Of a stretch of DNA of 57,645 bases, positions 22,353 through 42,921 are shown in pieces. Within the stretch, counting starts at the first letter, position 1, and each line of letters starts with the position of its first letter. The DNA is from Desulfobacteraceae bacterium. Its GTDB lineage: Bacteria > Desulfobacterota > Desulfobacteria > Desulfobacterales > JAABTS01. The position numbers were made by a program, and so were the translations under genes. The stretch spans positions 1-57,645 of the forward strand of contig JAABTS010000015.1 in the NCBI GenBank assembly GCA_011389735.1, in the 5' to 3' direction. The notes under the pieces are model-generated. The model saw nothing but the letters and a program-made list of their open reading frames with translations, was not told the origin of the DNA and did no database searches.

Positions 22353-22480
22353 CAGGTTTTCAGAAATTGAATTTCACAAAGTGGCAGGCCCGGAATAATA
22401 CGGAATAATGCGGAATAATACTAATACAGTTTGTGTATCCCGGGCCGGCGACACAGTGAAATTTAATTTTCGGGAACGAG
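22353..22480. repeat. family B repeat with internal GGAATAAT duplications
   Basis: Left end GGTTTTCAGAAATTGAATTT, core GGCAGGCCCGGAATAATA, then three CGGAATAAT units in a row, GTGTATCCCGGGCCGGCGAC, and right end GTGAAATTTAATTTTCGGG. The two ends and the two GC cores pair, so it can fold into a hairpin with an AT-rich loop. Confidence 0.75.
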
Positions 22481-22510
22481 ACTATATGCCCGCTAATAGA
22501 CCGGTCCAGA

Positions 22511-23713
22511 CTACAAAACGATAACCGATTCCTCATAATTTGTAAGCTGTTCCAGACCGGAACCGTCGACCAGATAGGTGTTTTCTACGCCCACCACTCC
22601 TTTTCCGGGAAAAATCAGTTTAGGTTCAATCGCCACAATCATTCCGGATTCGAGCAGCATATCCTGCCCTTTAGCGATAAACGGGTATTCGTCCAACTCC
22701 AGTCCTACTCCGTGGCCGATAAATTTGACCCGTTCATGATCCGAACCCATGAAGTAGTCAGCATATCCCGAGTTTTTCACATATTCCACGGCTGTTTCAT
22801 AAAGAGCGCCTGTCCGCTTGCCTGGGGCGGCCTCTGTTTTTATGATTTCCTGAAGGCTCAGCATGGCCTCATGAGCGGCCGTCAATTCATCCGGCAATTC
22901 GCCGATCGAAAATATCCGGGTTTCATCGGAAATATACCCGTTCCAGGCAAACGTGTAATCGAAAAGCACGGGTTCGTGACGCCTGATAGGCCTGAAACTC
23001 GATCCTTGAGCGACCGCCGGACTCAGGCCTGCGCCTCCTGTTGGAGAGGCCAAATAGCTGGGAACGGCCGCAGCGGGGCCGGCCATGAGATGTCCGTAGA
23101 ATAGCTCGGCGCCCCATAATCGCATTTTGACCACGCCCTGATGTCCCAATTCACGCGCCCTGGCTTCCATTTTTCCCGCCAGTGCGACTTCCGAAATCCC
23201 TTCGCGGAGCACCTCCTTCATGTAATCCGCCAGCATGTCTGAAAACTTCGCCGCCTGTCTGACGACGTCGATTTCGTAGCTTGATTTCACCGCCCTGATT
23301 CTTCGAATAGGATCGGACACATCAATGATTTCAGTATCCTTGAATATTTTTTTAAACCGGAAATACATATCCGTGGGTAAAACATCGAGTTCCATGCCCA
23401 GAGCGGCGGGCCTGTCATGGCCGTTTTGTTCGATCAGATCCGGAATTGTCGACGCGCTTTTCAATTCCGTGATATAGGGGAGCGGGGATTCGGTTTTGGC
23501 TCTTGCCGAACTTTTTTTGACCATCAGCAACGGGTCTCCTTGAGGCGGGACAAAAAGATAACCCTGCTGAGAAGTACCGGTGAAATAGTATAGATCGGTG
23601 TTTTGAGCGATTAACGCTGCAATTCCGCCTTCGCCGGCCAAATAATGTTGCAGCTTCCGGATTCTTTGTTTTATTTCTTCTTCGGGCGTTTTATTTTGGA
23701 TCGTATCCATCAT
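22511..23713 (-). CDS. M24-family Xaa-Pro aminopeptidase-like protein
   Basis: 400 residues. The N-terminal creatinase-like domain (1-140) is followed by the pita-bread metallopeptidase fold. All five metal ligands appear: Asp in VLFDYTFAW, Asp in YISDETRIF, His in FIGHGVGLELDEYP, Glu in AIEPKLIF and Glu in VGVENTYLV. It should remove N-terminal residues before proline, or act on a related small substrate. Its ATG overlaps the nadE stop by four bases (ATGA), so it is translationally coupled to NAD synthesis genes, a link that has no obvious biochemical reason. Confidence 0.9.
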   Translation of the reverse strand: MMDTIQNKTPEEEIKQRIRKLQHYLAGEGGIAALIAQNTDLYYFTGTSQQGYLFVPPQGDPLLMVKKSSARAKTESPLPYITELKSASTIPDLIEQNGHDRPAALGMELDVLPTDMYFRFKKIFKDTEIIDVSDPIRRIRAVKSSYEIDVVRQAAKFSDMLADYMKEVLREGISEVALAGKMEARARELGHQGVVKMRLWGAELFYGHLMAGPAAAVPSYLASPTGGAGLSPAVAQGSSFRPIRRHEPVLFDYTFAWNGYISDETRIFSIGELPDELTAAHEAMLSLQEIIKTEAAPGKRTGALYETAVEYVKNSGYADYFMGSDHERVKFIGHGVGLELDEYPFIAKGQDMLLESGMIVAIEPKLIFPGKGVVGVENTYLVDGSGLEQLTNYEESVIVL

Positions 23714-24576
23714 GGCCGTTCCATCGTATTCATTACCATGTCATTCTTTTGCGGAGCAGATTCTCCGGGCAATTTCCCCGACGCATCCCTCAATTGCACC
23801 ACATAAGGGGCTTCATGTTTGTGTTTATGAGCCAGATGCCGATCCCAAACAAATTTGCCGATGTCGGACAAGGTGTTTCGATCCACGTTGTCGTAATCTT
23901 TCAAAATTCGCCTGATTTCCGGTTCCATTTCATCGTATGAATATCCGATTTCCGCTTCGTCGGTCTGGGATTCCCACAAGCCGGCGGAGGGTTTCCGGTT
24001 GATCATCGATTCAGTGATCACGCCTTGATCCCGATAGTGTTCCAGAAGGCGGTACACTTCGGATTTAAATAATTGGCCGATCGGGAAAATATCCGCCAGC
24101 GCGTCCCCGCCTTTGGTGTCGTATCCGATAAAGTCTTCAGAAAGATTGCCGGTTCCCATAACCCTGGCGCGTTTTTTCAAGGTGTCGCTCAAGTGATGCG
24201 CCAGGCCGTATAGCACGCACATACGCGCTCTCGCTCTCGCGTTGCCGGAATTCACCATCGAGAGCGAATCGGCGGAATCAATATTCAATCCGGATGCGAC
24301 GGCGCCGTTGATCGAGTCGGCCGCGGCTTTTACGGAAATGATGCGGTGGCGCAGGCCAATATGGGAGGCGTATAACTCACTTTTTCGGTTGAAGGTTTTA
24401 AGATCCGTGTCCGAATAAGGCAGACTGAAGGTATAAACGGATTCCTTGCCGAGCGCGTCCTGGGAAAGCAGCGCGGTCAGAAGCGAATCCGCTCCCCCGC
24501 TCAACCCGATCACCGCCACATCGACATGGGCTTTGATGTCCTTTATGATGATTTGTTTGACTCTTTCCACATCCAT
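23710..24576 (-). CDS. nadE: NAD(+) synthetase, ammonia- or separate-glutaminase-dependent
   Basis: 288 residues. It adenylates nicotinic acid adenine dinucleotide and amidates it to NAD. The ATP pyrophosphatase loop SGGADS is at residues 26-31. RARARMCVLYGLAHHL and GTGNLSEDFIGYDTKGGD are the NaAD and ATP-binding segments, and KPSAGLWESQTDE matches the conserved KxPSAxLWxGQTDE region. The nitrilase-like glutaminase domain found in long NadE is missing. It follows pncB by ten bases and overlaps the M24 peptidase gene, giving a pncB-nadE salvage operon. Confidence 0.95.
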   Translation of the reverse strand: MDVERVKQIIIKDIKAHVDVAVIGLSGGADSLLTALLSQDALGKESVYTFSLPYSDTDLKTFNRKSELYASHIGLRHRIISVKAAADSINGAVASGLNIDSADSLSMVNSGNARARARMCVLYGLAHHLSDTLKKRARVMGTGNLSEDFIGYDTKGGDALADIFPIGQLFKSEVYRLLEHYRDQGVITESMINRKPSAGLWESQTDEAEIGYSYDEMEPEIRRILKDYDNVDRNTLSDIGKFVWDRHLAHKHKHEAPYVVQLRDASGKLPGESAPQKNDMVMNTMERP

Positions 24577-24586
24577 ATTTCAACTC

Positions 24587-25750
24587 CTATTGTGTAAATA
24601 CACTTCTTAAATAATCGAGATAATGATTGTCCTTACACATTTGTTTTCCAGGCGAATCCGATATCTTGGCGACCGGAGCGTTCTGGCATCGGGTCATCTT
24701 GATGACGATCTGAATCGGTTCGCCGGCGACGACATCGTTGGTTAGATTCGTTCCGATACCGAAACCGGTCATAATCCTGCCCTGGAAATATTGGGCGAGT
24801 TCACGCGCCTTTTCGAATGTAAGGCCGTCGCTGAACACCGCCGACCTGGTTCGCGGATCGATCTTCATGTTGCGGTAGTGTTCGATCAGTTTGTCTCCCC
24901 ATTCAAAAGGTTCGCCGCTGTCATGACGGCATCCGTCAAAAAGTTTGGCGAAATACATGTCGAAGTCGTCCAAGAAGGCGTCAAATCCCACGACGTCCGA
25001 CAAAGCAATCCCCAGATCGCCTCGATATTCCTGCGCCCAGTGTTCAAGCATGAATCGCTGGCTGTACGCCAGGCGAGGCCCCAGAGCCTGGCCGGCCATC
25101 AGCCATTCGTGCGCCATTGTGCCGATGGGGCGAATACCCAGCTTTTTGGCAAGAAAAACATTACTGGATCCTCGGAAATTTTGGGGAAGGCTTTCTTTGA
25201 GCCGGGTTGCGACTTCTTCCTGCCAGTTTTTCGAAAACCGCCGTCGGGTTCCAAAGTCCGAAAACTTAATGGAAACGCCGTCTTTGTTGGCGGCCTCGAC
25301 AATGGCGATTTTTTTATCAAGCCGCCGACGGGCCTCCGCAAAATCAGGATTCGGATATAATCGCCGATAGTATAGCTCGTTTACGATGGCAAGCACCGGG
25401 ACTTCGAATAAAATGGTGTGAAGCCAGGGCCCTTTGATGGTAATGGCGAGCCCGTTTTTAGCCGTTACTTCGATAAACTCACGGTTCAACTGAAACAATC
25501 TCAGAAATTGGATAAAATCGGGTTTGATAAACCGTAACTGCCCGAAATATTCAAGTTCCTCTTTTGTAAACCGTAAGCTGCATAAATGATCGATTTCATC
25601 GCGAACCGCATCGGCGACAGGGGAAAGGTCAATTGTTGCGTCCCGGCATGTGAACTCATAGGCGACTTCCGCCCAGGGAAATTGATGCAAAACCCCTTGC
25701 ATCATGGTGAGCTTGTATAGATCCGTGTCCAACAAGGAAGAAATGATCAT
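24587..25750 (-). CDS. pncB: nicotinate phosphoribosyltransferase
   Basis: 387 residues from the preferred start. It makes nicotinate mononucleotide from nicotinate, PRPP and ATP, the first step of NAD salvage. Signatures: SLLDTDLYKLTMMQG at the N-terminus, KFSDFGTRRRFS, GTMAHEWLMAGQAL with the phosphorylated His, and FSDGLTFEKA with GFGIGTNLTND for phosphate binding. An ATG at 25783 is also in frame but the ATG at 25750 has AAAAGAGG five bases upstream and gives the usual N-terminus. First gene of the pncB-nadE-M24 peptidase set. Confidence 0.95.
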   Translation of the reverse strand: MIISSLLDTDLYKLTMMQGVLHQFPWAEVAYEFTCRDATIDLSPVADAVRDEIDHLCSLRFTKEELEYFGQLRFIKPDFIQFLRLFQLNREFIEVTAKNGLAITIKGPWLHTILFEVPVLAIVNELYYRRLYPNPDFAEARRRLDKKIAIVEAANKDGVSIKFSDFGTRRRFSKNWQEEVATRLKESLPQNFRGSSNVFLAKKLGIRPIGTMAHEWLMAGQALGPRLAYSQRFMLEHWAQEYRGDLGIALSDVVGFDAFLDDFDMYFAKLFDGCRHDSGEPFEWGDKLIEHYRNMKIDPRTRSAVFSDGLTFEKARELAQYFQGRIMTGFGIGTNLTNDVVAGEPIQIVIKMTRCQNAPVAKISDSPGKQMCKDNHYLDYLRSVFTQ

Positions 25751-26122
25751 GGCGGCCTCTTTTGATTGAGTTGAATGTAACATCCCTCAGCATTTTTCAA
25801 AATGAATTTCCGGAAATCCGATAGTTGAAAAAATTTCCTGAGAGATAATAATTTATAGAATCATGATGAAAAGGAAGTCAAGAAAAACAACGTCTGAACC
25901 GGATTGATATTTTGGGTTAAAGCCAATTGATTGAATAGAATTCATAATATTTATAATGATTTGTCTTGATTCGAATCATTAAATCCGATATTTTTCAATC
26001 ACATTTTTTTCGAGCTGTAAAAAATGTGACGCAGGTTGATTTGATGGTTTGAATATTTAAAAATCGATAAAATTCTCCCGTAGCCGTTGTGGAATTTTTT
26101 CGAAGGCCGTTGCGAGGTGAAA
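25751..26122. other. AT-rich divergent region between pncB and ppdK
   Basis: No gene. Promoters for pncB (leftward) and ppdK (rightward) should lie here. TATAAT at 25952-25957 has TTGATT 19 bases or TTGAAT 15 bases upstream; neither spacing is ideal. A perfect ten-base palindrome GATTCGAATC lies near 25968-25977 and could be an operator or chance. Confidence 0.35.
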
Positions 26123-28852: not shown

Positions 28853-29157
28853 ATCGCCGCCGTCCCTTAACACCGCGCGATAGAGAGCCTTCCAGAAATT
28901 AAATTTCATTATGTCGCCGGCCCGGAATATGATGTACAGCGATTTTTAAATCGCTGCTTTTCTCCCCTAATTAAAAATTCAGGGTACATCCCGGGCCGGC
29001 CGCCTTGTGAAAGTTTATTCCCGAAGATCTGTTTAATCAGAAAAAAGATATTCGGTGGTATATGCTAACCGCTTGAAATTACAATGTATCAATCGCATTC
29101 TGAAACCACTGCGCCTTCCCTGGCCCTTTTTAGAAACAAACCCCGTGCATTAAATTC
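28853..29157. repeat. intergenic region with a family B repeat
   Basis: A full family B copy spans 28886-29027: left end CCTTCCAGAAATTAAATTTC, core GTCGCCGGCCCGGAATATG, a central stem TTTTTAAATCGCTGC region, right core CCCGGGCCGGCCGCC and right end TTGTGAAAGTTTATTCCCG. The loop segment GATTTTTAAATCGC recurs at about 50822. The rest of the gap contains no recognisable gene. Confidence 0.7.
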
Positions 29158-29186
29158 TTGACAGAAACGGAATCAATCGCTAAACT
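29158..29186 (+). promoter_or_regulatory. candidate promoter for the DUF1566 gene
   Basis: TTGACA at 29158-29163, 17-base spacer, TAAACT at 29181-29186, about 97 bases upstream of the ATG at 29283. A second TTGACA lies near 29208 without a good -10. Confidence 0.4.
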
Positions 29187-29282
29187 CCGTTCATTTTTTA
29201 AAGCCCCTTGACAATGTACTTAAAATAATTCGCTGTACGCTGGCTTCAAATTCAAAAATTGGGTCGATCTAAGGATGGAACT

Positions 29283-29762
29283 ATGAAAAAGTTGATTTTC
29301 CGGGTGGCCGTCATTTTTTTTATAATCGCCGGAATTTCGAGTTTGCAAGCCGGTGAACGGTTTATCGACAACGGAGACGGCACGGTGACCGATCAAAAGA
29401 TGAAACTGATGTGGTCGAATACGGATAATCAGGGGGATATCGGCTGGAGGGAGGCTGCAAAGTGGATCGAGTACAATTTCGCTTATTCGCTCCCGGAAGC
29501 CCCCAAATATGATAATTGGCGTATGCCCTCCGTCGAAGAGCTTCAAAGCCTGTATATACAAAACAATAAGGGCTATGAAACGGATTGCGGCCAGCATGTA
29601 AAAATAGTCGATCTGATCGAACTTTCCTGCGGATGGGTCTGGTCATCCGAAAAAAAATCGATTACCGCCAGGGTTTTTAATTTTCAAAAAGGATATCATT
29701 ATACCGATCGGATTGTTCGCAAACGCGGTTACCGGGCCTTGCCGGTCAGAAATATTGAATAA
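29283..29762 (+). CDS. exported DUF1566 (Lcl C-terminal-like) protein
   Basis: 159 residues. A signal peptide covers about residues 1-22 (LIFRVAVIFFIIAGISSLQA). The mature part is one DUF1566 unit: RFIDNGDGTVTDQKMKLMWS, NWRMPSVEELQSL, WVWSSEK and the closing GYRALPVRN, with two Cys that may form a disulfide. Such units are related to formylglycine-enzyme and C-type-lectin-like folds found on cell surfaces; the function is unknown. An upstream in-frame TTG exists at 29259, but ATG 29283 gives a clean signal peptide. It is flanked by family B repeats on both sides. Confidence 0.8.
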   Translation: MKKLIFRVAVIFFIIAGISSLQAGERFIDNGDGTVTDQKMKLMWSNTDNQGDIGWREAAKWIEYNFAYSLPEAPKYDNWRMPSVEELQSLYIQNNKGYETDCGQHVKIVDLIELSCGWVWSSEKKSITARVFNFQKGYHYTDRIVRKRGYRALPVRNIE

Positions 29763-29782
29763 TGAATTCGAAGGCGTAATAG

Positions 29783-29881
29783 CAGGTTTGCAGGAATTAA
29801 ATTTTACGAGGCGGCGGGTCATGGGCATAATGTCCGTATGTCCGGGCCCGACAACGCGTTGGAATTGAATTTCCTGAGGGC
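29783..29881. repeat. family B repeat
   Basis: Left end GGTTTGCAGGAATTAAATTT, core GCGGCGGGTCATGGGCATAA, then GTCCGTATGTCCGGGCCCGA and right end GGAATTGAATTTCCTGAGGG. The ends pair well (GGAATTAAATTT with GAATTGAATTTCC). It lies between the DUF1566 gene and the TRAP binding-protein gene. Confidence 0.7.
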
Positions 29882-29941
29882 TGTAACGTCTTGGTGTTAA
29901 ATCCATATCAACCGTTTTACACATTTTTTAAAGGAGGTAAC

Positions 29942-30931: not shown

Positions 30932-31011
30932 CCGTGTTTGTTTATAGGTTTTTAAGCGAACCTGGTCCGGAAAGTAAATCAAGGAGTTGACGACCTGATC
31001 CTTTACGGAAT

Positions 31012-31040
31012 AAAAGCCGGGCGGCGATCCGGCTTTTTTT
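31012..31040 (+). terminator. terminator or attenuator between TRAP receptor and permease
   Basis: AAAAGCCGG (31012-31020), an eight-base loop, CCGGCTTTT (31029-31037) and further T residues. It lies 80 bases after the binding-protein stop and 45 bases before the permease start, so partial termination would make more receptor than permease. Confidence 0.7.
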
Positions 31041-33222: not shown

Positions 33223-33984
33223 TTATACGATTTTTAAATCTTGGGGTTTTTTAGATGCTTTTCCGGCTTTTTCCCGGAGTTCATCCCATTCATCCAGTCT
33301 TCTTGCGGATTCCATGATGATTTCCATCGTGTTGATTTCCACGATTCCTTGTTCGACGAATTCGACCACACAATCCCGGTACTCAAATTCCCCTTCGCGC
33401 CATAGAAACATTTCCAGCACCGCTTCCTGAACCTGCTGGCGAATGACTTCTTTGAGCGTATTCTGATCGATATAATTCAGTTCCAAAAGGACTTCACCGA
33501 TCATCTTGCCGGTTTTTTTGGATTCTTCAAGAGCGAATTTCAACCGGTCATTGGAAATCATGCCGTTTTTGTAGAGGATTTGTCCCATTCTAAGGCCCAC
33601 GCTGTCGCTGGCGGCGATAATATTGCCGTCTTTCAAGCAGATGACGCTCTTGATATGGCGTCTGACCATCTGGAGGATACCGGTTTTTTGTTTAGATGAC
33701 AGCATTTGAAGCACCGTCGCCAGATCCACCGCTTGAAGGCTTCCTTTTAAATCTACGGTGTTCGATTTATTGAGGAAACGCACGGATAACCTGAACGGAT
33801 TCCAGAGCAAATGCTGGTCTCTTAAATTCCAGGCCTTTATAGCTTCCTGAAGCGTATCTTTTCTGGGCCCCATAGCGCCGCACCGGCAGCGGACAGCATG
33901 CCTGCCGGTTCCATCCGGATCGATGAACATCCAGATTCTGCCGCAAAACGGGCAATGTTTGAATTCCTTGATTGTATAGACCAT
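33223..33984 (-). CDS. Lar-like zinc ribbon fused to DUF4388 domain
   Basis: 253 residues. The first 55 residues form a zinc ribbon: CPFCGRIWMFIDPDG, then CRCGAMGPRKDTLQEAIKAW, the exact spacing and GPxxxTxxEAIxAWN ending seen in small Lar-type restriction-alleviation proteins of phages and plasmids. From about residue 75 follows DUF4388 (DLKGSLQAVDLATVLQML, TGILQM, ICLKDGNIIAA, MGQILYKNGMI, IGEVLLELNYI), a PatA-like domain tied to gliding and signalling regulation. The fusion is uncommon to my knowledge. It is monocistronic; the terminator is shared with the TRAP genes. Confidence 0.75.
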   Translation of the reverse strand: MVYTIKEFKHCPFCGRIWMFIDPDGTGRHAVRCRCGAMGPRKDTLQEAIKAWNLRDQHLLWNPFRLSVRFLNKSNTVDLKGSLQAVDLATVLQMLSSKQKTGILQMVRRHIKSVICLKDGNIIAASDSVGLRMGQILYKNGMISNDRLKFALEESKKTGKMIGEVLLELNYIDQNTLKEVIRQQVQEAVLEMFLWREGEFEYRDCVVEFVEQGIVEINTMEIIMESARRLDEWDELREKAGKASKKPQDLKIV

Positions 33985-34752
33985 TTTGTTCCGCGTATCG
34001 ATTTCAACGGATTTTAATCAGGCGGACATCCTGTTATTAACCGGTTGGTCACAGCCGTCCACCCGTCAATATTGTAATTACTCCTTTGCGGAAATCAAGT
34101 TACACTTGCTGTCGGCTCGGGATATGCCGTCAGTATGATCCAGAACCCGCCGCCTTGTGAAATTTGATTCCCGAAAATTCGATATAATCCTTTCCGGAAT
34201 GCGAAGCCGCAAAACCCGTCAGAGGCCCGTACCCTCTATAAGCGGCGTTTTTATGATCGCTTTTTTCAATAGGAAATTCGAAAAGCGACACTTTCGCGAA
34301 TCGTCAATGTCTTTGATACCTCTTTCGGCCGTGTATGTCAATATTCGTTATTGTTCAACGCTCTTTTATCGGTTTTCAGAAATTCAATCGCCGGAAGGCG
34401 AGATCATGACAAGCCTGTGTTTCCGGGAAAAAGATTAAATTTTCGGGAACGCCTCCTCCTTGTCGAAATTATCCTTGCATATACCGCCGTTCCCGAGTAT
34501 TATGAAACTTCCTGTATGTATTGCCATAGTCTTCCAGGAATCAAATTTCACTGCGTTGTCGGCCCGGGATACAACAATATTGTTATCCACAGCCCGTCGC
34601 CTTGTGAAATTTAATTTTCGAAAACCTATACTTAAAATTCAGTAAGTTGACAAATATTTGGTGTAACGGGTAAAAATTGTCCGTCCGGCTCCGGGAAAAA
34701 ACGGATTTGTTCCGGAAGGATGTTGAATGATGAAACAAGAGGATAAAAAAGT
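33985..34752. repeat. 768-base gap holding three family B repeats
   Basis: Copy at about 34087-34180 (GCGGAAATCAAGTTACAC to GTGAAATTTGATTCCCG), copy at about 34371-34455 (GGTTTTCAGAAATTCAATCG to TTAAATTTTCGGGAACG, with a shortened core) and copy at about 34527-34628 (CTTCCAGGAATCAAATTTCA to GTGAAATTTAATTTTCG with GGCCCGGGATA core). Open frames here run through the repeats and are not credible genes. Confidence 0.65.
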
Positions 34753-35241
34753 ATGTCTGTGGAAAACGAGAACGACCCGCCGAAATGGGATGATGATGAT
34801 TCCGATGAGGATATGGAATTCGAGGAAAAATCGCCGGATGATGTTCTGGCTTCCAAAATCGTCCAATATTTTGGGTATTTTGAAGAATACAGCTTAAAAA
34901 AAATTGCTAAAACGTGCGTCAAACTCATCATCAGTGAATATTACAAAGCCCTTTGCTATGGAAGCTTTCAGTTCCCGTCTCATGATGAAATGAAATCCTG
35001 GGTTCTCGAAGAAATGAAACAGAGTTTTGACGAGAAGGTAATACCTTTGATCGAACAGACTTATCCGGATTTAAGCGAAGAAGAATTCGAAGAAAAGGTC
35101 AACCTGCTGGAAGCATTGTACCAGAAAGAACATGAAGAACAGCTCAATTCGACAACCAACGCCGCTCTCAAGGAACTCCGGATCAAAGTGAAAGCGTTGC
35201 AGAAAGAATTGACGGCGCTTAAACGGAAATACACGATTTAG
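34753..35241 (+). CDS. acidic coiled-coil protein of unknown function
   Basis: 162 residues, not recognised. The first 30 residues are strongly acidic (WDDDDSDEDMEFEE); a middle helical part has Tyr- and Lys-rich segments (SLKKIAKTCVKLIISEYYKA), and the end is a basic coiled coil (ALKELRIKVKALQKELTALK). No signal peptide. GAGG precedes the ATG by about ten bases. The U32 peptidase gene follows nine bases after its stop, so the two are probably co-expressed. The charge pattern suggests a scaffold or binding partner, without further evidence. Confidence 0.6.
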   Translation: MSVENENDPPKWDDDDSDEDMEFEEKSPDDVLASKIVQYFGYFEEYSLKKIAKTCVKLIISEYYKALCYGSFQFPSHDEMKSWVLEEMKQSFDEKVIPLIEQTYPDLSEEEFEEKVNLLEALYQKEHEEQLNSTTNAALKELRIKVKALQKELTALKRKYTI

Positions 35242-35250
35242 ACGCTGAAT

Positions 35251-37233
35251 ATGCAATCTACAGATTCCAATCCGGCTCCCCTCATTCTGGCGCCAGGCGG
35301 GAACAGGCGTTCTTTTCTGGCAGCCGTTGCAGCGGGTGCGGACGCTGTGTACTGTGGCCTGAAATCGTTTTCCGCCCGCATGGAAGCGAAAAATTTTACC
35401 ATTGAAAACCTGGTTCCTATAGCGGAACTGGCCAGAGAAAACGACATAGGTCTGTATCTGGCCTTGAATTCTCTTGTCAGGCCCGCAGAGCTGTCTCAGG
35501 TCGCGGCGTGTCTGGAGGCGCTGAAGCGGCGAGTAAAGCCGGACGCCTTGATTATCCAGGACCTGGCCCTCGTATCCCTGGCGCGGAAAATCGGGTTTGA
35601 AGGCGAAATTCATTTATCTACGCTTTCAAATTTTTGTTTTCCCCAGGGATTCCGCGCATTGGAAGATGAATTCGGCGTTCGCAGGGTGGTGCTGCCTCGG
35701 GAACTGACCATTGACGAGATCAAAGCTATGGCAGCCGTATGCCCGGAAAACATGGGCCTGGAGGTGTTTGTCCATGGCGCCCTTTGTTTCGGCGTTTCCG
35801 GAAGATGTTACTGGAGCAGCTATCTTGGCGGAAAGAGCGGGCTGCGAGGGCGATGCGTGCAACCCTGCCGGCGAATCTACGAATCCGGCGGCCGCCGGGA
35901 AAGATTTTTTTCCTGCAAGGATTTAAGCCTGGACGTGCTGGTGAAGGTATTGAAACCCATATCCGGAATTCGCGCCTGGAAAATCGAGGGCAGGAAAAAA
36001 GGGCCTCATTATGTATTTTACACGGTGAAGGCATATCGCATGATGAGAGATCACGGGCATGACCCTGCCGCCAGGCGGGAGGCCGCCGCGCTTCTGGAAC
36101 GATCCCTGGGCAGGCCGGGCACGCATTATAATTTTCTTCCGCAGCGACCTCAGCCGCCGGTAGATATCGACAAGCAAGCCTGTTCCGGACTTTTTATCGG
36201 AAGGATCAAAGGCGCCGGACACAATACATCGGTCAATCCGCGTGAATCCTTGATTTCAGGGGATGTGTTGCGTATCGGAGACGAGGACGGCCCTTTTCAC
36301 GGTATTGTCCGTGTAGGACGGTCCGTTCCCAGGCAGGGGCGGTTAAACGTCAAGCTTCGCAAAGGAACGGGATCTCCGAAAGGAACTCCCGTATTTTTGA
36401 CGGATCGATGTGAACCGGAACTGGATCGATTGATTTCAGATCTGGAGGATCGGCTCCCCGCCGATCCTGTTCCCCCGGAGGTTAAGCTTAACGGCGGCGG
36501 GGGCGATCCGCTTCTTACACCGCGTCCGGCGAAAAAAGCTTTCCGCGTTTCGGTGGCAAGGACTTTGCCTGATACGGATGATCAAATGCAGGCAGGGTTG
36601 TGGATTTCGGAATCCAATGTCCAATCCTTTGGCGAAAAGAGGAACAGCGGTTTATGGTGGTGGCTCCCGCCGGTTCTCTGGCCGGAACAGGAAGATCGGT
36701 TCGCGGGACTGATCGAGAGCCTGATACAATCGGGGAATCAGCGTTTTGTGGTCAATATCCCCTGGCAGACCGCTTTTTTTTCTGAACCGGGCAGGTATAC
36801 CCTGTGGGCGGGGCCTTTCTGCAATATATCGAATCCGGAAGCCGCCCTGGTCATGCAGGATATGGGAGTAAAGGGCGTGATCGTCGGTCCGGAGCTGTGC
36901 CGGGAGGATTTGTCGGCTTTGGCGTCGTCCGTCGATGTTCCCCTTGGAATCGTGGTTCAGGGATGGTGGCCGCTATGCATATCACGGCGCAGGCCCGAAA
37001 CGGAGGAACCCCCGGCAATTTATGAAAGCCCGAAAAAGGAAATAGCATGGAACGTCCAGCATGAAAGCGATTTATGGCTGTATCCGAACTGGAAAATCGA
37101 TATCGAGGACAAGATTCCGGAATTGAAGCGTCTGGGATTTGAAATGATGGTGTACCTTAGCGAATCATTGCCTGAGAGCGTTATCCCGAAGGCTCGTCCC
37201 GGGCGTTGGAACTGGGATTTGACTCTTTTGTAG
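35251..37233 (+). CDS. peptidase U32 family protein (collagenase-like/RNA hydroxylation type)
   Basis: 660 residues. The N-terminal TIM-barrel-like U32 domain has APGGNRRSFLAAVAAGADAV and YCGLKSFSARMEAKNF, then the family signature EVFVHGALCFGVSGRCYWSS and GRCVQPCRRIY with Fe-S or metal-binding Cys. Members include RlhA and TrhP, which hydroxylate rRNA or tRNA, and YhbU/V; some were described as collagenases. The C-terminal half (about 330-660) is more divergent. Function cannot be fixed: RNA modification is the better-supported modern reading. Gene order suggests coupling with the acidic protein upstream. Confidence 0.82.
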   Translation: MQSTDSNPAPLILAPGGNRRSFLAAVAAGADAVYCGLKSFSARMEAKNFTIENLVPIAELARENDIGLYLALNSLVRPAELSQVAACLEALKRRVKPDALIIQDLALVSLARKIGFEGEIHLSTLSNFCFPQGFRALEDEFGVRRVVLPRELTIDEIKAMAAVCPENMGLEVFVHGALCFGVSGRCYWSSYLGGKSGLRGRCVQPCRRIYESGGRRERFFSCKDLSLDVLVKVLKPISGIRAWKIEGRKKGPHYVFYTVKAYRMMRDHGHDPAARREAAALLERSLGRPGTHYNFLPQRPQPPVDIDKQACSGLFIGRIKGAGHNTSVNPRESLISGDVLRIGDEDGPFHGIVRVGRSVPRQGRLNVKLRKGTGSPKGTPVFLTDRCEPELDRLISDLEDRLPADPVPPEVKLNGGGGDPLLTPRPAKKAFRVSVARTLPDTDDQMQAGLWISESNVQSFGEKRNSGLWWWLPPVLWPEQEDRFAGLIESLIQSGNQRFVVNIPWQTAFFSEPGRYTLWAGPFCNISNPEAALVMQDMGVKGVIVGPELCREDLSALASSVDVPLGIVVQGWWPLCISRRRPETEEPPAIYESPKKEIAWNVQHESDLWLYPNWKIDIEDKIPELKRLGFEMMVYLSESLPESVIPKARPGRWNWDLTLL

Positions 37234-37242
37234 GGAGCCTGA

Positions 37243-37893
37243 ATGAAAGCGAAATTTAGGAATAAATTCAAAATTTTACTTTTAATGACCTTACTTTCGG
37301 AACTGATCGTCTGGGGCCTTATTAAAGGCGATATCGAAGAAGGGCGGCAGGAAATTCATATCGCTCTGGCCTGCCCGGTGTCCGGGCCTGAAGGAGAGAT
37401 CGGAAAGTCATTTATTCGGGGCGCGAAATTGTTTTTGCAAGATCTCGAAGATCAGGACGGGATTAAAGGAATAAAGCTGATTCTCGATATTTATGACGAA
37501 CAGAATGATCCCGCCCTTGCGGCTCTTATGGCCGAAGATATCGCCAATAATCCGAAAATCAAGGCGGTCGTCGGGCATCATTTCAGCAGTTGTTCCATCA
37601 AGGCCGGGGAGGTGTACAAAAAATATCAATTACCGGCGATCACCCCCGGTTCCACGCACATCGACGTAACCAAAGAAAATCCATATTATTTGAGAACCAT
37701 TTTCAACGATAACCTTCAGAGCCGTTTTCTGGCCAATTATATGAAAAAAGTCCTTGGAAATGAAACGGTCAGCATTATTCAGGAGGACAGGGCGTATGTG
37801 AACGAAAAGCCTCAAAATACGGCTCTGAGCGGGTTTGTAACCCGCGTATCCCCACTCGCGGCAACGGGGATTGCAACCCCCCCGGGAACGTGA
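37243..37893 (+). pseudogene. branched-chain amino-acid-type binding protein, truncated by a family C repeat
   Basis: The frame codes for about 185 residues of a type 1 periplasmic binding protein: an N-terminal hydrophobic anchor, HIALACPVSGPEGEIGKS, RGAKLFLQDLED, IYDEQNDPALAALMAEDIA, AVVGHHFSSC and PAITPGSTHIDVT. It then breaks inside what should be the second lobe (EDRAYV...) and continues as translated repeat sequence from about 37797. Family proteins are about 370-400 residues, so half of the gene is lost; no 3' remainder was found downstream, which suggests recombination at the repeat rather than a simple insertion. It starts nine bases after the U32 gene. Confidence 0.8.
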
Positions 37894-37912
37894 GGAGGTT
37901 TTCGTGCAGCCG
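37795..37912. repeat. family C repeat that ends the binding-protein frame
   Basis: GTGAACGAAAAGCCTCAAAA, CGGCTCTGAGCGGGTTTG, then GTAACCCGC, ACTCGCGGCAACGGGGATTG, CAACCCCCC and right end ACGTGAGGAGGTTTTCGTGC. Nearly the same as the copy at 42770-42886 in order and orientation. Confidence 0.8.
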
Positions 37913-37938
37913 TCAAATACCATAAAAAAGGGGGAGCT

Positions 37939-40137
37939 ATGACATCATCCGTTTTTAAAAAAACAGCAGTTTTGATCCTGGCCGGTGTTTTCTTGTCAAT
38001 AGCGGCGTGTTCGGATGATTCGTCCGATTCTTCCGAATCCGGAGAACGGGAATTCGAATACACGCTTGAAGAAAAGGGCGGACTGACTCTTGTTACGCCC
38101 AAAGAATCCAATATCGTGATTGATTTGGGCGGCGGGATCAAATTGAATAAATCTTTTTATCCCCGGTTCAACAACAATCCCAGCCCGGAGCCTGTCGAGG
38201 AGGACTATTTTTTCTTATACAGGCCCGGAAGCAGCGAAAACGGAAATTCCGCCGGGAAATTGCTGATCAATTTCATGGGCGGCGGCGCTTGTTGGGAGAA
38301 CGAGAATTGCCTGGAACACAGAACCAATTATACTTGGAACACCTTGAAATCCATCGCTGAAAATCCGGAACTGTTTTATCAGGTGCAAAAAGGGATCGTA
38401 TGGAACGAGAATGACGATAATCCGTTCAAGGACTGGACTCTCGTTTTTTTACCGTACACCACAGGGGATATTCACTGGGGCTCAAACGATCAAACATATA
38501 CGGACGAAGATGGAAATCCGGTGGTCGTGCATCACCGCGGCCATGACAATTTTCTGGCGGCGCTCAGGTTCTTGAAGGAAACTCATCCGCCGGACGCGGT
38601 TGAAAAAGTGTTCGTGACAGGGCAGAGCGCCGGGGCCTATGGCGCCGTTTTCAATTTTCCCTATGTACGGGAAGTGTATAAAGAGGCAAAAGCATACTGT
38701 CTGGGCGATGGGGGCGTGGGCGCAACCACCGAATCCTTTAAAACCGCGGCGTTTGATCATTGGAAAGCCCCTGAAAACGTGTGTGAATGGGTGACCGGAG
38801 TGGATACTGCGGCATTTAGAAAAATGAGCCTCGGGGATTTTTACCAGACTCTGGCCGAATATTACCCTGAATGCCGCTTTGGCCAGTACACGACCCAATA
38901 TGACCATAATCAGCGGTTTTTCTACTATCTCATGACACAAATAAAAGACGTGTCAAAATGGAATTATATGAACCAGGACGGTTTTTTTGTTCCGGACGAA
39001 ATCAGTTGCGAATGGACCGGAATCATGCTTCGGAATCTGGAGCCTGCATTGACGCTGGACAATTACAATGTCTATGTCGCTCCGGGCGAAGTGCATACAA
39101 TCACCACGTCGGAGGATATGTACGATGTCTCCGCCGACGGCGAACCGTTCGTTAGATGGTTGAGGCGCATGGTCAATGACGATCCCGAGTGGAACGACGT
39201 CAAATGCGATGAAACGGGAAACAGTTGCGACCGCCCGGAAACATTGGATTCGCCGGCCGGGCTGGTCTGCCAGGGACTCTCCGTGTTCCCGGTCGCCGGT
39301 CGGGAAATGGTGACAGGCAAATTCAACCAGACCGAAGGACTGGCGTTTAACAGCGACGGCCGGCTTTTTGTGGGATCGGACGCCGGGATTTACGAGGTGT
39401 TTACGGACGGATCCGTGAAACCTGTCACTGACGCCTTCGATCAACCCCTGGGCATGGCTCCCGGCCCGGAGGATAAGCTTTATGTTTGCGACTTCGGGCC
39501 GACCTCTTTTTTAGACGGGAGTTTCGATAACGATGGAAAAATCATGCTTCTGTCCCCGGACGGGACGTTCTCCGAATGGGGTTCCGGAATTCCGGACCCC
39601 AATTTCGTGACGGTCGGGAAAGACGGCCGGCTGCTTGTGTCCGACGATTTCGGCGACACCATCTACGAAATACCGAAAGACGGCGGGCGTGCGGCTGAAT
39701 GGTGCGCCGGGATCGACGCTCCCAACGGCATGGCGTTTTCAAAAGACGGTAAGACCCTGTTCGTCGCTCAGACCTTCCCCGAGAAAGGCGTGATCGATGC
39801 ATTTGATTCACGGGTGTGGTCGATATCGCTGACTGGAGCCGACCGGGAGCCGGGGCGAATCCGGCTGCTGGCGACGCTCGATGAAAACGCGGCAAATGAC
39901 GGTGTGGCGGTAGATAACAACGGATTTTTATACGTTGCCGCAAATGTCTCCGGAAAACTGTTCCGGATCGATCCGGCGGACGGCTCGGCGACCCTGATTG
40001 CGAAAGATTTGCCGTTTATTGCAAGCCTTGCATTCGGGCGGGGGCGATTCAGCCGGAGGTCCATTTACGCGACTCAATTATTGGGCGGGAATATATGGGA
40101 AATTCCTGTCGGCGTTGAAGGCGCCGCGCTTTATTAA
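37939..40137 (+). CDS. lipoprotein: pectinacetylesterase-like domain fused to SMP-30-type beta-propeller
   Basis: 732 residues. A lipoprotein signal ends at SIAAC (Cys about 23) followed by a Ser/Asp-rich linker, so it is anchored to the envelope. Residues about 60-420 resemble pectinacetylesterase/Notum-type hydrolases: LLINFMGGGACWENENC (oxyanion region and Cys) and the nucleophile Ser about 230 in VTGQSAGAYGAVF. Residues about 450-732 form a six-bladed SMP-30/gluconolactonase-like propeller with repeated GLAFNSDGRLFVGS, NGMAFSKDGKTLFVAQ and DGVAVDNNGFLYVAAN blades. It may de-esterify a carbohydrate or lipid ester. GGGGGAG precedes the ATG; the gene begins 27 bases after a family C repeat. 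Confidence 0.8.
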   Translation: MTSSVFKKTAVLILAGVFLSIAACSDDSSDSSESGEREFEYTLEEKGGLTLVTPKESNIVIDLGGGIKLNKSFYPRFNNNPSPEPVEEDYFFLYRPGSSENGNSAGKLLINFMGGGACWENENCLEHRTNYTWNTLKSIAENPELFYQVQKGIVWNENDDNPFKDWTLVFLPYTTGDIHWGSNDQTYTDEDGNPVVVHHRGHDNFLAALRFLKETHPPDAVEKVFVTGQSAGAYGAVFNFPYVREVYKEAKAYCLGDGGVGATTESFKTAAFDHWKAPENVCEWVTGVDTAAFRKMSLGDFYQTLAEYYPECRFGQYTTQYDHNQRFFYYLMTQIKDVSKWNYMNQDGFFVPDEISCEWTGIMLRNLEPALTLDNYNVYVAPGEVHTITTSEDMYDVSADGEPFVRWLRRMVNDDPEWNDVKCDETGNSCDRPETLDSPAGLVCQGLSVFPVAGREMVTGKFNQTEGLAFNSDGRLFVGSDAGIYEVFTDGSVKPVTDAFDQPLGMAPGPEDKLYVCDFGPTSFLDGSFDNDGKIMLLSPDGTFSEWGSGIPDPNFVTVGKDGRLLVSDDFGDTIYEIPKDGGRAAEWCAGIDAPNGMAFSKDGKTLFVAQTFPEKGVIDAFDSRVWSISLTGADREPGRIRLLATLDENAANDGVAVDNNGFLYVAANVSGKLFRIDPADGSATLIAKDLPFIASLAFGRGRFSRRSIYATQLLGGNIWEIPVGVEGAALY

Positions 40138-40150
40138 CAATGTTATGCGC

Positions 40151-40180
40151 TTGACAATATGAGCGCATTTTTGATATAGC
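40151..40180 (+). promoter_or_regulatory. candidate promoter at the edge of a family B repeat
   Basis: TTGACA at 40151-40156, 18-base spacer, TATAGC at 40175-40180. The -10 element is the TATAGCCTTCC left end of the family B copy that follows. It would drive the cyclic-nucleotide-binding protein gene at 40311 and maybe the genes beyond. Confidence 0.4.
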
Positions 40181-40283
40181 CTTCCGGAAATTCAGTTTCG
40201 CAGCGTCGTCGGCCTGATATATACGAATATTATAATACCAGGCCCCGACGCTTCGTGAAATTTAATTTCTGAAAACCTTATAC
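40175..40283. repeat. family B repeat
   Basis: TATAGCCTTCCGGAAATTCA, core CGTCGTCGGCCTGATATATA, an AT-rich loop, CCAGGCCCCGACGCTTCG and right end GTGAAATTTAATTTCTG followed by AAAACCTTATA. The complete copy shows inverted TATA-containing ends well. Confidence 0.75.
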
Positions 40284-40310
40284 GATGCACGGCCTAAGGA
40301 GTCATCACCG

Positions 40311-41066
40311 ATGGATAATGTTCTGGAATCAATAAAACAGGTTCCGCTTTTTTTTGGTTTGCCTGCGGAAATATTAGGTAATCTCGCTGAACGTTCCAAA
40401 GTGTATCAATTGGAAAAGGACGATATTCTGTTTCGCCAGGGTTCCGTCGGCGACAGCCTGTATATTATTACAAAAGGCAAAGTCAAAGTGTTTATCGAAA
40501 ATAATATCGAAGGCGAATTGACTCTGATCCTCTTTGGTCCCGGAGAATTTATCGGTGAAATGGCGATCCTTGAACAAAAACCGAGATCCGCAAGCGTCGC
40601 CGCCATAGGCCATGTCGAACTCATTGAATTAAAAAGAGACGACCTTCTGGAAATATTGAGCGCACAGCCTGTTCTGGCGATCAGCATGATGCAGAGCCTC
40701 GCGTCGAGACTTCGATTTACTTCCACCTATTTGACCAAAACCATGGATTGGACCCGTCAAATCGCGGAAGGTCATTATAATTCGGCCATTGAACAGATCA
40801 AATCGGTCAAGTCGAGTGTCGCGGATTTGTCCCTATCCGATGAAGACAAGGCTCAAAAATTTCTTACATCGTTTTTTCAAATGATCGAGGATGTGAAAAA
40901 CCGCGAAGAAAGTTTAAAAAGTACGGTGCAGCAGCTTAGAGTCGAAATCGACGAGGTGAAAAGGGCCAAACAGGTGTCCGAAATTACCGAGACCGATTAT
41001 TTCAAGGAATTGAAAAAAAAGGTGAAGATGCTAAGGCAAAGAGGCAAGGGCGATGGGAAAACATAA
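40311..41066 (+). CDS. cyclic-nucleotide-binding domain protein with coiled-coil tail
   Basis: 251 residues. Residues about 10-130 form a cNMP-binding beta-roll with KDDILFRQGSVGDSLYII and the phosphate-binding FGPGEFIGEMAIL...RSASV cassette, with Glu and Arg in place to bind a cyclic nucleotide. Instead of a Crp-type HTH, the rest is helical with a final coiled coil (LKSTVQQLRVEIDEVKRAKQ), so it is not a standard transcription factor; it may tether or gate a partner. It opens the plus-strand run that leads into the PAAR/VgrG genes. Confidence 0.85.
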   Translation: MDNVLESIKQVPLFFGLPAEILGNLAERSKVYQLEKDDILFRQGSVGDSLYIITKGKVKVFIENNIEGELTLILFGPGEFIGEMAILEQKPRSASVAAIGHVELIELKRDDLLEILSAQPVLAISMMQSLASRLRFTSTYLTKTMDWTRQIAEGHYNSAIEQIKSVKSSVADLSLSDEDKAQKFLTSFFQMIEDVKNREESLKSTVQQLRVEIDEVKRAKQVSEITETDYFKELKKKVKMLRQRGKGDGKT

Positions 41067-41141
41067 GACTTGAAAACTGTTTCCATGAAATTTGGTTTTC
41101 GGAAGGCTGTACAACCCATATCATTTGATTAACCTTCCTTT

Positions 41142-41468
41142 TTGGAGCAAGTGAAGCGGCGAGTTGCGATCATGCAAGAAGATTTTTCAATGCTTGATTT
41201 AATGACGAAATCCGATGAATCATCCGGGATGATTTTGCGGCTGATCAAACAAAACGGGATGACCAGGGACGAATTGATCAAGGAATTCAATCTGTCTCCG
41301 GATGAAGCTCGAACCATAATTGACGGACTGATGGCGAAAGGTCTTGTGCGGGAAGTCAACGAACAGGGCGTGGTGTTGTACAAGGCCGTTGTTCGGCGAA
41401 AACCGCAAAAACGGGCGAACAAAAGCGGCAAATCGCCTTTGGACGGATTGTTCCCGCTGGATGAATAA
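41142..41468 (+). CDS. small winged-helix-like protein
   Basis: About 98-108 residues. The core has a MarR/DeoR-like winged helix pattern: SGMILRLIKQNGMTRDELIK, FNLSPDEARTIIDGLMAKGL, VREVNEQGVVLYKAV, then a basic tail. It could bind DNA or act as a protein-interaction wing. The start is uncertain: TTG 41142, GTG 41151 and ATG 41172 are in frame and none has a good ribosome site at normal spacing. It lies between the cNMP-binding gene and the MinD-like gene. Confidence 0.6.
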   Translation: MEQVKRRVAIMQEDFSMLDLMTKSDESSGMILRLIKQNGMTRDELIKEFNLSPDEARTIIDGLMAKGLVREVNEQGVVLYKAVVRRKPQKRANKSGKSPLDGLFPLDE

Positions 41469-41748
41469 CCTTTGAACACGCCTGATGACGATCATAAAAT
41501 CGACCTGGCGTTATCGCGTTTAGGATACCGGTTTTCAGAAGTCAATTTCACAAGATGGCCCGCGATCATACTGATTGGTGGTAGGCAATAGCACACTGAA
41601 TAGCTGAGATACTTTCAATAACGTCCATGATAGAAATTTATCACCCCGTATCATGAAATGAATTTCACAGTAAACTTGAAATCGAGTCAACGATACACCG
41701 TGTACCGGAGTTCGACAACATATTCAAAAACAACGAAAGAGGTGATCC
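41469..41748. other. intergenic region with family B fragments
   Basis: A B left end (GGTTTTCAGAAGTCAATTTC then ACAAGATGGCCCGCGATC) lies at about 41529-41565. GAAATGAATTTCACAG near 41656-41672 may be a remnant of the other end. The TTGTCG..TATTC region just before the next gene has no strong promoter match. Confidence 0.45.
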
Positions 41749-42504
41749 ATGCCTAAAATATTTTCCATTCATTCCTTCAGAGGGGGCACCGGTAAGTCTA
41801 ACACCACCGCCAATATTTCTTCTTTGTTGGCTTCAAAAGGGTTGCGTGTCGGCGTGATCGACACGGATATTCAATCTCCCGGCATCCATGTGCTGTTTGG
41901 GCTGGAACCCGATGAAATGGGAAACACCCTGAATGATTTTTTATGGGGAAAATGCCGGCTTTCCGATACGGCTCATGATATGACATCCCGTCTTGGAAAA
42001 CAGATCAAAGGCAAACTTTTTTTGATTCCGTCGAGCATGAGGGCCACGGAAATCGCCCGTGTTCTCAGGGAAGGCTATGATGTCGGCCTTTTGAATGAAG
42101 GATGCCACGAGCTGATCGATAAACTAGATCTGGATGTCCTTCTGATCGACACCCACCCGGGGCTAAATGAAGAAACGCTCGTGTCCATAGCGATTTCCGA
42201 CGTCCTTGTTCTGATTATGCGGCCCGATCAACAAGATATTCAGGGAACCGCGGTCACTGTAGACGTGGCCCGCAAGCTGAACGTCAACAACATGTATCTG
42301 ATCGTCAATAACACTCCGGAAACCTTTGATTTCAATCAGATCAAGAGGGACATGGAGAACGTGTACAATTGTTCGGTGGCCGCGATTTTATCCCATTCTC
42401 CGGAAATGATGGTGCTTGGCGGAAAAGGCGTTTTCGCCCTCAATTATCCGGATAGCGAATTGACGGGCAAGCTCCAAAAAGTCTCGGAAATGCTCATGAC
42501 CTGA
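41749..42504 (+). CDS. MinD/ParA-like ATPase
   Basis: 251 residues. A deviant Walker A motif FRGGTGKSNTTANI is at residues 10-23, with the signature Lys preserved, then VGVIDTDIQSPGIHVLFG and LLIDTHPGLNEETL as Walker B. The C-terminus lacks the typical MinD membrane-targeting helix. MinD/ParA-like proteins position cargo or complexes in the cell; here it may position the spike apparatus encoded downstream, by inference from the neighbourhood. AGAGGTGATCC precedes the ATG. Confidence 0.88.
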   Translation: MPKIFSIHSFRGGTGKSNTTANISSLLASKGLRVGVIDTDIQSPGIHVLFGLEPDEMGNTLNDFLWGKCRLSDTAHDMTSRLGKQIKGKLFLIPSSMRATEIARVLREGYDVGLLNEGCHELIDKLDLDVLLIDTHPGLNEETLVSIAISDVLVLIMRPDQQDIQGTAVTVDVARKLNVNNMYLIVNNTPETFDFNQIKRDMENVYNCSVAAILSHSPEMMVLGGKGVFALNYPDSELTGKLQKVSEMLMT

Positions 42505-42527
42505 ACCTTTTCATCACATTGTGTATA

Positions 42528-42690
42528 AGGGAAGTCACAGAAAATAAACTACCCATCTTGCTTGCCTTTTGGCCCGTATTCCGTATTGCGTCAAGAGGTG
42601 AATATTTCAATATGCACGCTCTTGACACAACACGGAATACGAACCAAAATTCAGCGCAATATTGGGTAGTTTATTTCCAGTAACTTCCCT
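42528..42690. repeat. 163-bp near-palindromic MITE-like element
   Basis: The two ends are inverted copies: AGGGAAGTCACAGAAAATAA on the left against AGGGAAGTTACTGGAAATAA read from the right, each followed by ACTACCCA. A second inverted pair lies inside: CGTATTCCGTATTGCGTCAA and, from the right, CGTATTCCGTGTTGTGTCAA, both continuing with GAGC or GAGG. The centre is TGAATATTTCAATATGC. No open frame. It resembles a non-autonomous IS derivative; no parent element with these ends is in the window. Confidence 0.75.
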
Positions 42691-42691
42691 A

Positions 42692-42921
42692 AGTTTTCAG
42701 AAATTAGATTTAATCAGCCGGCAAAACCGGGATAATATCATCCGTATATCCGGGGCGGACAAATCGTGACTGAACGAAAAGTCTCAAAATACGGCTCTAA
42801 GCGGGTTTGCAACCCGCGTCTACCCTCTCGCGGCAAACGGGGATTGCAAATCCCCTTGGAGCGTGAGAAGGTTTTCGTTCAGCCACTAACTCAGTGTAAT
42901 TCAATTTCCGGAAGACTACAA
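42692..42921. repeat. family B repeat split by a family C repeat
   Basis: B left half at 42693-42768 (GTTTTCAGAAATTAGATTTA, GCCGGCAAAACCGGGATAAT, CCGTATATCCGGGGCGGACA). B right half at about 42889-42918 (TCAGTGTAATTCAATTTCCG then GAAGACT). Between them lies a full family C copy (listed separately). The MITE-like element at 42528 abuts the left edge, so three different repeats are stacked. Confidence 0.75.
42770..42886. repeat. family C repeat nested in family B
   Basis: CTGAACGAAAAGTCTCAAAA, GGCTCTAAGCGGGTTTGC with AACCCGC, CTCGCGGCAAACGGGGATTG with CAAATCCCC, and GGAGCGTGAGAAGGTTTTCG ending TTCAGCC. The outer ends are inverted (GCTGAACGAAAA against TTTTCGTTCAGC), with two inner hairpins. 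Confidence 0.85.

What the first reader, a model, noticed from the sequence alone, without database searches (positions are those of the whole stretch)
22353..42921. Family B repeats: outward TATA-like ends around a GGCCCGGGATA core
Ten or more copies or fragments (2108, 3853, 13745, 22353, 28886, 29783, 34087, 34371, 34527, 40175, 42692, 45066) share ends TATAG-CTTCCGGAAATT-AATTTC and inverted GAAATTAATTTC-GAAAAC-TATA, around a GC core. At 40175 the left end supplies a -10 to a TTGACA. They may act as mobile promoters or terminators, or as BIME-like sites.
Basis: partly seen in the sequence, partly recalled or inferred. Interest (0 to 1): 0.6.

Follow-up and report, generated by a model that had tools for sequence, protein, structure and literature searches.

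The report
Palindromic jumping repeats of Desulfobacterales
The repeats are copies of a small, hairpin-shaped jumping DNA element that inserts at the letters TA and is scattered by the hundreds through this bacterium and occurs in many of its relatives; the kind is known from other bacteria, but this family seems undescribed and the enzyme that moves it was not found.

Summary
The repeats are real and belong to one family. A ~106-bp imperfect palindrome, TA-[YAG...CTR]-TA, gives 141 hits (58 full-length) in 763 kb of contigs not chosen for copies and 0 in the reversed control; that extrapolates to about 1,200 copies and fragments. Relatives occur in 20 of 145 other genomes searched. It is a MITE-like mobile element: two clean empty sites in related genomes, CAAATA[TAG...CTA]TAGAGG against CAAATAGAGG and GTT-TA[...]TA-GTA against GTT-CA-GTG, show a 2-bp target duplication. 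Copies sit between genes (228 of 237), in random orientation, and decay evenly. Across lineages the arms change together (23 of 43 pairs with double changes), while an asymmetric core stays nearly fixed. The moving enzyme was not found: six of ten related genomes carrying the repeat show no DDE_3 (IS630-type) gene. The terminator and BIME readings are not supported. The promoter claim at 40175 fails (its TTGACA lies in a terminator-like hairpin), but copies carry promoter-like matches above shuffled expectation (69 against 29.9), so promoter activity stays open. Closest known kind: ERIC, Correia/NEMIS and RUP elements.

The parts
34525..34631 (+). full copy, best in the window
   Evidence: 106 bits; 87% to a typed consensus
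40175..40282 (+). full copy, directly after a terminator-like hairpin
   Evidence: 86 bits; hairpin
34076..34179 (+). full copy
   Evidence: 81 bits
22349..22488 (-). full copy with enlarged loop
   Evidence: 82 bits
29782..29888 (-). full copy
   Evidence: 66 bits
28883..29034 (+). full copy with enlarged loop
   Evidence: 33 and 34 bits for the two halves
42690..42921 (-). copy split by another palindromic repeat (family A, about 42766-42882)
   Evidence: 45 and 19 bits for the two pieces; sequence
13745..13780 (+). left half of a copy, joined to an ATCGGG-type repeat
   Evidence: 31 bits over 13745-13876; sequence
   Evidence: 25 bits
   Evidence: 24 bits
41084..41116 (-). fragment
   Evidence: 12 bits
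34366..34406 (-). fragment
   Evidence: 10.5 bits, E 0.13
3846..3888 (+). looks like a mini form: both ends, no core
   Evidence: by eye; 9.6 bits, E 0.26; not matched by the strict patterns
45088..45117 (-). doubtful fragment
   Evidence: 7.8 bits, E 0.9

Best explanation
Family B is a non-autonomous, palindromic mobile element (a MITE). A transposase supplied in trans recognises the two terminal inverted repeats (about 27 bp) and inserts the element into TA dinucleotides, duplicating the TA. Elements amplify, land or survive mainly between genes, and then decay evenly. Selection for continued movement, rather than host function, keeps the arms complementary and the asymmetric core nearly fixed in the lineages that go on spreading. 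SHOWN: ends, inverted repeats, 2-bp target duplication at two sites, copy number, spread over the order, even decay, arm covariation. INFERRED: a TA-specific transposase acting in trans, its identity unknown, and that mobility is what selects hairpin and core.
For: Strong conservation begins and ends at TA-YAG...CTR-TA in 98 left and 99 right own ends; outside, no base exceeds 0.49. Clean empty sites: G048 L131:8837-8945 against G132, and G132 L065 against G048. 141 hits, 0 in control. 20 of 145 other genomes. 228 of 237 copies intergenic in DNA 81% covered by ORFs. Orientation 45 against 43; conservation 0.78 to 0.88 in all six segments of 101 own copies. Arm covariation over 25 representatives: 61 double-changed cells against 17.5 shuffled. 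Inside the own genome 91 double changes against 962 mismatch or wobble cells.
Against: No autonomous element was found: one DDE_3 gene in the own genome, best B match in its locus 3 bits; no DDE_3 match in 6 of 10 related genomes; no transposase recognised between B ends in the seven of twelve long end-pairs inspected. A simple MITE needs conserved ends and not a conserved core, yet across lineages much of the core is better conserved than the arms. Only two empty sites are clean; one is ambiguous in a TA run, one involves an older copy, one is degenerate. Promoter-like matches exceed shuffles in the copies, so some host effect is possible.
Confidence: 0.87

Rival explanations
1. REP/BIME-like element moved as single-stranded hairpin by a Y1 (RAYT) transposase.
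For: Hairpin with a fixed irregular internal loop across lineages; 6 Y1_Tnp matches in the own genome.
Against: TA duplication at empty sites. In the six Y1 loci (1.7 to 3.3 kb each) there is one full copy (74 bits, L205) and weak partial matches of 18, 14 and 11 bits in three others; at the density about three hits of 20 bits or more would be expected by chance.
Confidence: 0.06
2. A host regulatory element (promoter, terminator, or mRNA-stability hairpin) kept by selection in most places.
For: Intergenic; very stable hairpins; promoter-like matches above shuffles in own copies, 69 against 29.9, and with a 15-base spacer 50 against 12. Some copies may be co-opted, as reported for ERIC and Correia (PMC10969869, passages). 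I raised this from 0.06 to 0.08.
Against: Even decay over all segments and random orientation; mismatch and wobble cells far outnumber double changes in the own genome; no excess between convergent genes; absent at the same locus in relatives at the empty sites found.
Confidence: 0.08
3. The arm covariation does not reflect selection but palindrome-correcting mutation (template switching between the arms). This would change the reading of the hairpin, not that of the element as mobile.
For: Such a process is known for quasi-palindromes (recalled, no call) and would give double changes.
Against: The internal loop stays asymmetric in the copies aligned.
Confidence: 0.15
4. A MITE moved by a classical IS630 transposase, as proposed for RUP in pneumococcus.
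For: TA duplication and about 100-bp length match RUP (PMC2229807, passages).
Against: No DDE_3 match in G048 (97% complete, 2 contigs), G045 (100%), G095 (98%), or the less complete G047, G097, G132 (82-86%); G048, G097 and G132 differ in insertions.
Confidence: 0.12

Closest known systems
ERIC (enterobacterial repetitive intergenic consensus)
   Same: 127-bp intergenic palindromic MITE, TA at the ends, target duplication, stable hairpin; up to 711 copies reported in Photorhabdus (PMC2229807, PMC10969869, passages)
   Different: Other bacterial group; here an estimated 1,200 copies and fragments. No ERIC sequence was aligned to B.
Correia/NEMIS element of Neisseria
   Same: MITE with 24-bp inverted repeats, TA ends and RNA hairpins, 107- and 155-bp forms (PMC2229807, passages); Correia carries sigma-70-like promoters (PMC10969869, passages), B copies carry promoter-like matches
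   Different: Promoter activity not shown here; IHF site not tested; sequences not aligned
RUP of Streptococcus pneumoniae
   Same: 107 bp, TA target (PMC2229807, passages)
   Different: RUP has a proposed IS630 partner; none found here
REP/BIME and GTAG repeats
   Same: Palindromes in high copy; GTAG repeats are reported in 'D. alkenivorans' (PMC3733652, passages)
   Different: 20-40 bp (abstract), with a GTAG tag not involved in pairing (passages); here the TATAG ends pair and a TA is duplicated

Membership tests
Bacterial palindromic MITE (ERIC/Correia/RUP kind, features as in PMC2229807) | small (about 100-200 bp), too short for a transposase | tested here: met
   about 102 bp between the TAs; most paired ends in the 100-119 bp class
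Bacterial palindromic MITE (ERIC/Correia/RUP kind, features as in PMC2229807) | terminal inverted repeats with TA at the ends | tested here: met
Bacterial palindromic MITE (ERIC/Correia/RUP kind, features as in PMC2229807) | target site duplication | tested here: met
   2 clean empty sites with a 2-bp duplication
Bacterial palindromic MITE (ERIC/Correia/RUP kind, features as in PMC2229807) | movement by a transposase acting in trans | tested here: inconclusive
   no partner with matching ends found in what was searched
IS630-derived MITE (RUP-like) | IS630 copy with the same ends in the genome | tested here: not met
   one DDE_3 gene in own genome, best B match in its locus 3 bits; no DDE_3 match in 6 of 10 relatives. 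The DDE_3 loci of the other four relatives were not read for ends one by one.
REP/BIME | GTAG/CGTC tag outside a short stem, RAYT partner | tested here: not met
   TATAG/CTATA ends pair with each other; TA duplicated; Y1 genes not associated
Rfam families | match at gathering score | tested here: not met
   window and five related loci: one match in all, a cobalamin riboswitch in L137
ERIC by sequence | sequence match to ERIC | not tested
   no ERIC sequence was fetched or aligned

The most novel reading that the evidence does not exclude
The folded hairpin itself, with its fixed asymmetric internal loop, is the substrate: an unknown, non-IS630 mobiliser reads the CTGCGTTATCGGTCGG / CCTTG loop as well as the ends, and the family has travelled through an order, and to at least one family outside it, by exchanging arms while keeping this core. 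That would be a structure-guided MITE system unlike what is described for ERIC or RUP.
Probability: 0.17. Interest if true: 0.65.

Novelty: new member of a known kind. Interest (0 to 1): 0.42.

Why it matters
It adds a widespread, very high-copy MITE family to a group of bacteria (Desulfobacterales) for which six paper searches (listings only) showed none. The contrast between even decay inside a genome and a nearly fixed core between genomes separates selection on the mobile lineage from selection on the host, which bears on ERIC-type elements in general. It also points to a nearly closed genome (G048) with insertions that its relatives lack, in which the missing transposase can be sought. 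For annotation, it warns against reading these hairpins as terminators or BIMEs.

Tried and rejected
Promoter at 40175: rejected (the TTGACA lies in a terminator-like hairpin). A promoter role in general is not rejected: matches exceed shuffles. Terminator role: rejected. IS630 partner: not found. Y1/RAYT partner: not associated. Autonomous copies: 12 long end-pairs listed in 1.22 Mb of own DNA; in the seven inspected (one of the two in L036, and L042, L125, L083, L117, L044, L034) I recognised no transposase by eye (no family search), and the long ORFs read as ordinary genes or repeats; the other five were not inspected. The same scan of the relatives' DNA listed no long pair, but its right-end model worked badly (1 hit), so that says little. 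A pattern for ends not followed by the usual next base gave 0 in G048 and G047, 3 in G132, 1 each in G097 and G045, and 34 in G067, where a base has changed in the lineage. Four of the five in G132, G097 and G045 are ordinary or nearly full copies; the fifth (L237, G097) is an end about 106 bases from the contig's end; the G067 loci were not read one by one. Repeats of 500 bp or more in 520 kb of G048 showed insertion sequences whose ends do not match B (by eye). RNA on one strand: wobble cells of the two kinds, 280 and 223, give no clear strand signal. Rfam: nothing. Viral contigs: nothing. The 20-39 bp class may count single arms twice, so I rely for mini forms.

Bias: the 54 named loci were chosen by a pattern over the left core, so conservation there is partly built in; 9 of the 25 rows of alignment A1 come from them. 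The right half is free of that choice. I chose the 25 rows by hand (23 from relatives' copies, of 89 full hits listed, and 2 own) and left out copies with a replaced apical hairpin (for example L067, L131:1559-1668, L132:11887-11996) and the longer right-arm subtype, so the apical conservation leans upwards; those copies keep the internal loop by eye. In one search the contigs were taken by number, skipping a few already fetched or known to carry copies, and only their first 20 kb. Searches scored at most 6 and 2 candidates per genome, so their genome counts are lower bounds; several matches are short (29 to 53 bases in G114, G104, G143, G132, G120, G094). Some shown relatives are one genome under two names: G097 and AUK125, G132 and G11, by identical copies and contig lengths.
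Full report
WHAT IS THERE. The window is contig C46 of a 6.5-Mb, 477-contig genome. Five clear window copies were aligned and used to search. A typed consensus gave 67 matches at E <= 0.01 (the two strands counted apart) among 1,082 raw candidates, of which only 40 were scored, in the whole genome. The best copies read TATAGTCTTCCAGAAATTAAATTTCACTGCGTTGTCGGCCTGGGATATACGAATAGTATTATCCCAGGCCTGCCGCCTTGTGAAATTTAATTTCTGAAAACCTATA. In 458 kb (the window plus 20 stretches from contigs known to carry copies) 122 hits reach 20 bits; in 763 kb of contigs taken by number 141 do, 58 of them full length. The same sequences reversed give 0 in both cases. This extrapolates to about 1,200 copies and fragments genome-wide; the hits cover 1.5% of the sampled DNA, and 44 of the 60 contigs hold at least one.

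ENDS AND INSERTION. In 98 left and 99 right ends of own copies, strong conservation starts and stops at TA-YAG...CTR-TA; outside, no base exceeds 0.49. Related genomes were searched with long stretches of G048. At L131:8837-8945 the G048 copy reads CAAATA[TAG...CTA]TAGAGG and G132 reads CAAATAGAGG. At L065, G132 reads GTT-TA[...]TA-GTA and G048 reads GTT-CA-GTG. Both show a 2-bp duplication. At L130:9130-9238 both relatives lack the copy, but in a TA run that hides the length; at L131:1559-1668 the copy sits in the end of an older one; L213/L220 is too degenerate to read. Only 3 of 32 full G048 copies (one of the 32 held twice) and 3 of 7 copies in the relatives' loci (two of the 3 the same place) had a comparable place in what I held.

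WHERE COPIES SIT. 228 of 237 copies of 25 bits or more are intergenic, although ORFs of 100 aa or more cover 81% of that DNA; neighbours are --, ++, -+ and +- in 66, 58, 45 and 29 of 198 placed cases. In 520 kb of G048, 45 of 46 are intergenic. Orientation relative to same-direction neighbours is 45 to 43.

PROMOTER-LIKE MATCHES. This result goes against a purely inert reading. The scan of 33900-43100 found 21 promoter-like matches against 9.7 (sd 3.4) in shuffles; six overlap full B copies by their coordinates. In 101 full own copies with 15-bp flanks there are 69, in 52 copies, against 29.9 (sd 5.8) in shuffles, and 0.68 per copy against 0.23 per 135-bp tile of other intergenic DNA (169 in 733 tiles); the commonest are TTCACA-18-NATACT inside and GTGAAA-17-TATANT running out of the right end. 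With a 15-base spacer there are 50 against 12 (sd 3.0). Copies share these by descent, so they are not independent. Correia elements do carry promoters (PMC10969869, passages). Whether B copies do is open.

VARIANTS. Some own copies have the loop enlarged by about 40 to 500 bases; 18 of the 19 that I printed carry TTGAATG or CATTCAAC heptamers, the window copy at 28883-29034 does not. Mini forms keep both ends and drop the core: 10 exact matches genome-wide, 0 in the control, and 3 strict ones in 1.22 Mb; 3853 in the window resembles them by eye but matched neither pattern. Each arm contains the palindrome GAAATTnAATTTC, so the two arms are also direct repeats; slippage between them would give the mini form in one step (inference). 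One copy (42690-42921) is split by another palindromic repeat, here called family A. The own genome also holds copies of the relatives' type (GGTCGGAGATA core), for example in L101 and L086.

SPREAD. With an own-type consensus, 21 of 146 genomes match at E <= 1e-5: the own one and 20 of the same order, in 13 other families; several of these matches are short. With a relatives-type consensus, 9 of 395 genomes drawn from the phylum match at E <= 1e-10: the own, 6 of the same order and 2 of one family outside it. A pattern for the left core hits 54 stretches of named genomes, 53 titled Desulfo- or Deltaproteobacteria-type and one Hyphomicrobiales, and none of the viral contigs. The order Desulfobacterales is inferred from these titles.

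STRUCTURE AND SELECTION. On 25 hand-chosen representatives (alignment A1) a 43-pair hairpin has 89.3% of cells paired (82.4 shuffled; 38 to 47 when slid), 23 pairs with double changes (10.6 shuffled) and 61 double-changed cells (17.5 shuffled); none of 500 shuffles reaches any of the five measures. Relatedness inflates such numbers, and the structure was derived from these sequences. Mean pairwise identity is 0.72 and 0.75 in the outer arms but 0.89 in the left loop, 0.95 and 0.91 in the two sides of the apical stem and 0.95 in CCTTG; the right loop as a whole (0.75) is no better conserved than the arms. Copies with a replaced apical hairpin were left out, which raises the apical figures. Inside the own genome conservation is even (0.78 to 0.88 in all six segments of 101 full copies), and mismatch or wobble cells (962) far outnumber double changes (91). 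So individual copies are not kept as hairpins; the spreading lineage is. I read this as selection for movement.

THE MOVER. The own genome has one DDE_3 gene; the best B match in its 3.5-kb locus has 3 bits. Of ten related genomes, G048, G047, G045, G095, G132 and G097 show no DDE_3 match; three of these six are only 82 to 86% complete. Six Y1 genes in the own genome are not associated with copies. Long end-pairs (seven of twelve inspected), an end pattern over six whole genomes and large repeats in 13% of G048 gave no autonomous element. The mover stays unknown.

KNOWN KINDS. A 2007 review (PMC2229807, passages) describes bacterial MITEs by size, terminal repeats, TA at the ends and target duplication; all were met here. 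[quoted passage not shown] A 2024 review (PMC10969869, passages) gives up to 711 ERIC copies, and the word start Desulfo does not occur in its main text. Six searches (listings only) showed no paper on a MITE of this order; four core strings of this repeat occur in none of the 5.39 million texts held. GTAG repeats (PMC3733652, passages) are a different kind.

Noticed in passing
window 42766-42882, 37782-37911, 45569-45702, 22219-22352, 20249-20297, 3886-3925: A second palindromic repeat family (A, about 130 bp, ends GGCTGAACGAAAACC...), 83 hits in 1.22 Mb of own DNA, 6 of them in the window (the places listed are); one copy splits a family B copy.
   Followed up: partly
window 128-185, 3970-4027, 13786-13843, 14121-14178, 20089-20146: A third repeat made of ATCGGG units facing each other around AAGGATTcAATTTC; it takes the place of the right half of the B copy at 13745.
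   Followed up: no
L105:3517-4122, L084:14708-15189, L047:153-380: B copies whose hairpin loop has grown into TTGAATG heptamer arrays with complementary CATTCAAC arrays, up to about 600 bp in all.
   Followed up: partly
L160, L161, L177, L180, L183, L188, L196, L132:13854-13984: In related genomes a longer right arm (CCTTGTGCCAATTTTTAAAATCGGATAATTA and the like) recurs, a subtype with about 13 extra bases.
   Followed up: no
101 full own copies, on the strand opposite to the consensus: A TTCACA and a GATAAT-like hexamer 15 to 18 bases apart recur inside the copies; whether this is a promoter is untested.
   Followed up: partly
L170:18-43: One core match near the end of a contig titled Hyphomicrobiales; mis-binning or a real transfer, not tested.
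   Followed up: no
L137:7276-7462: A cobalamin riboswitch match that overlaps the start of a B copy (7433-7542) in a relative's genome.
   Followed up: no
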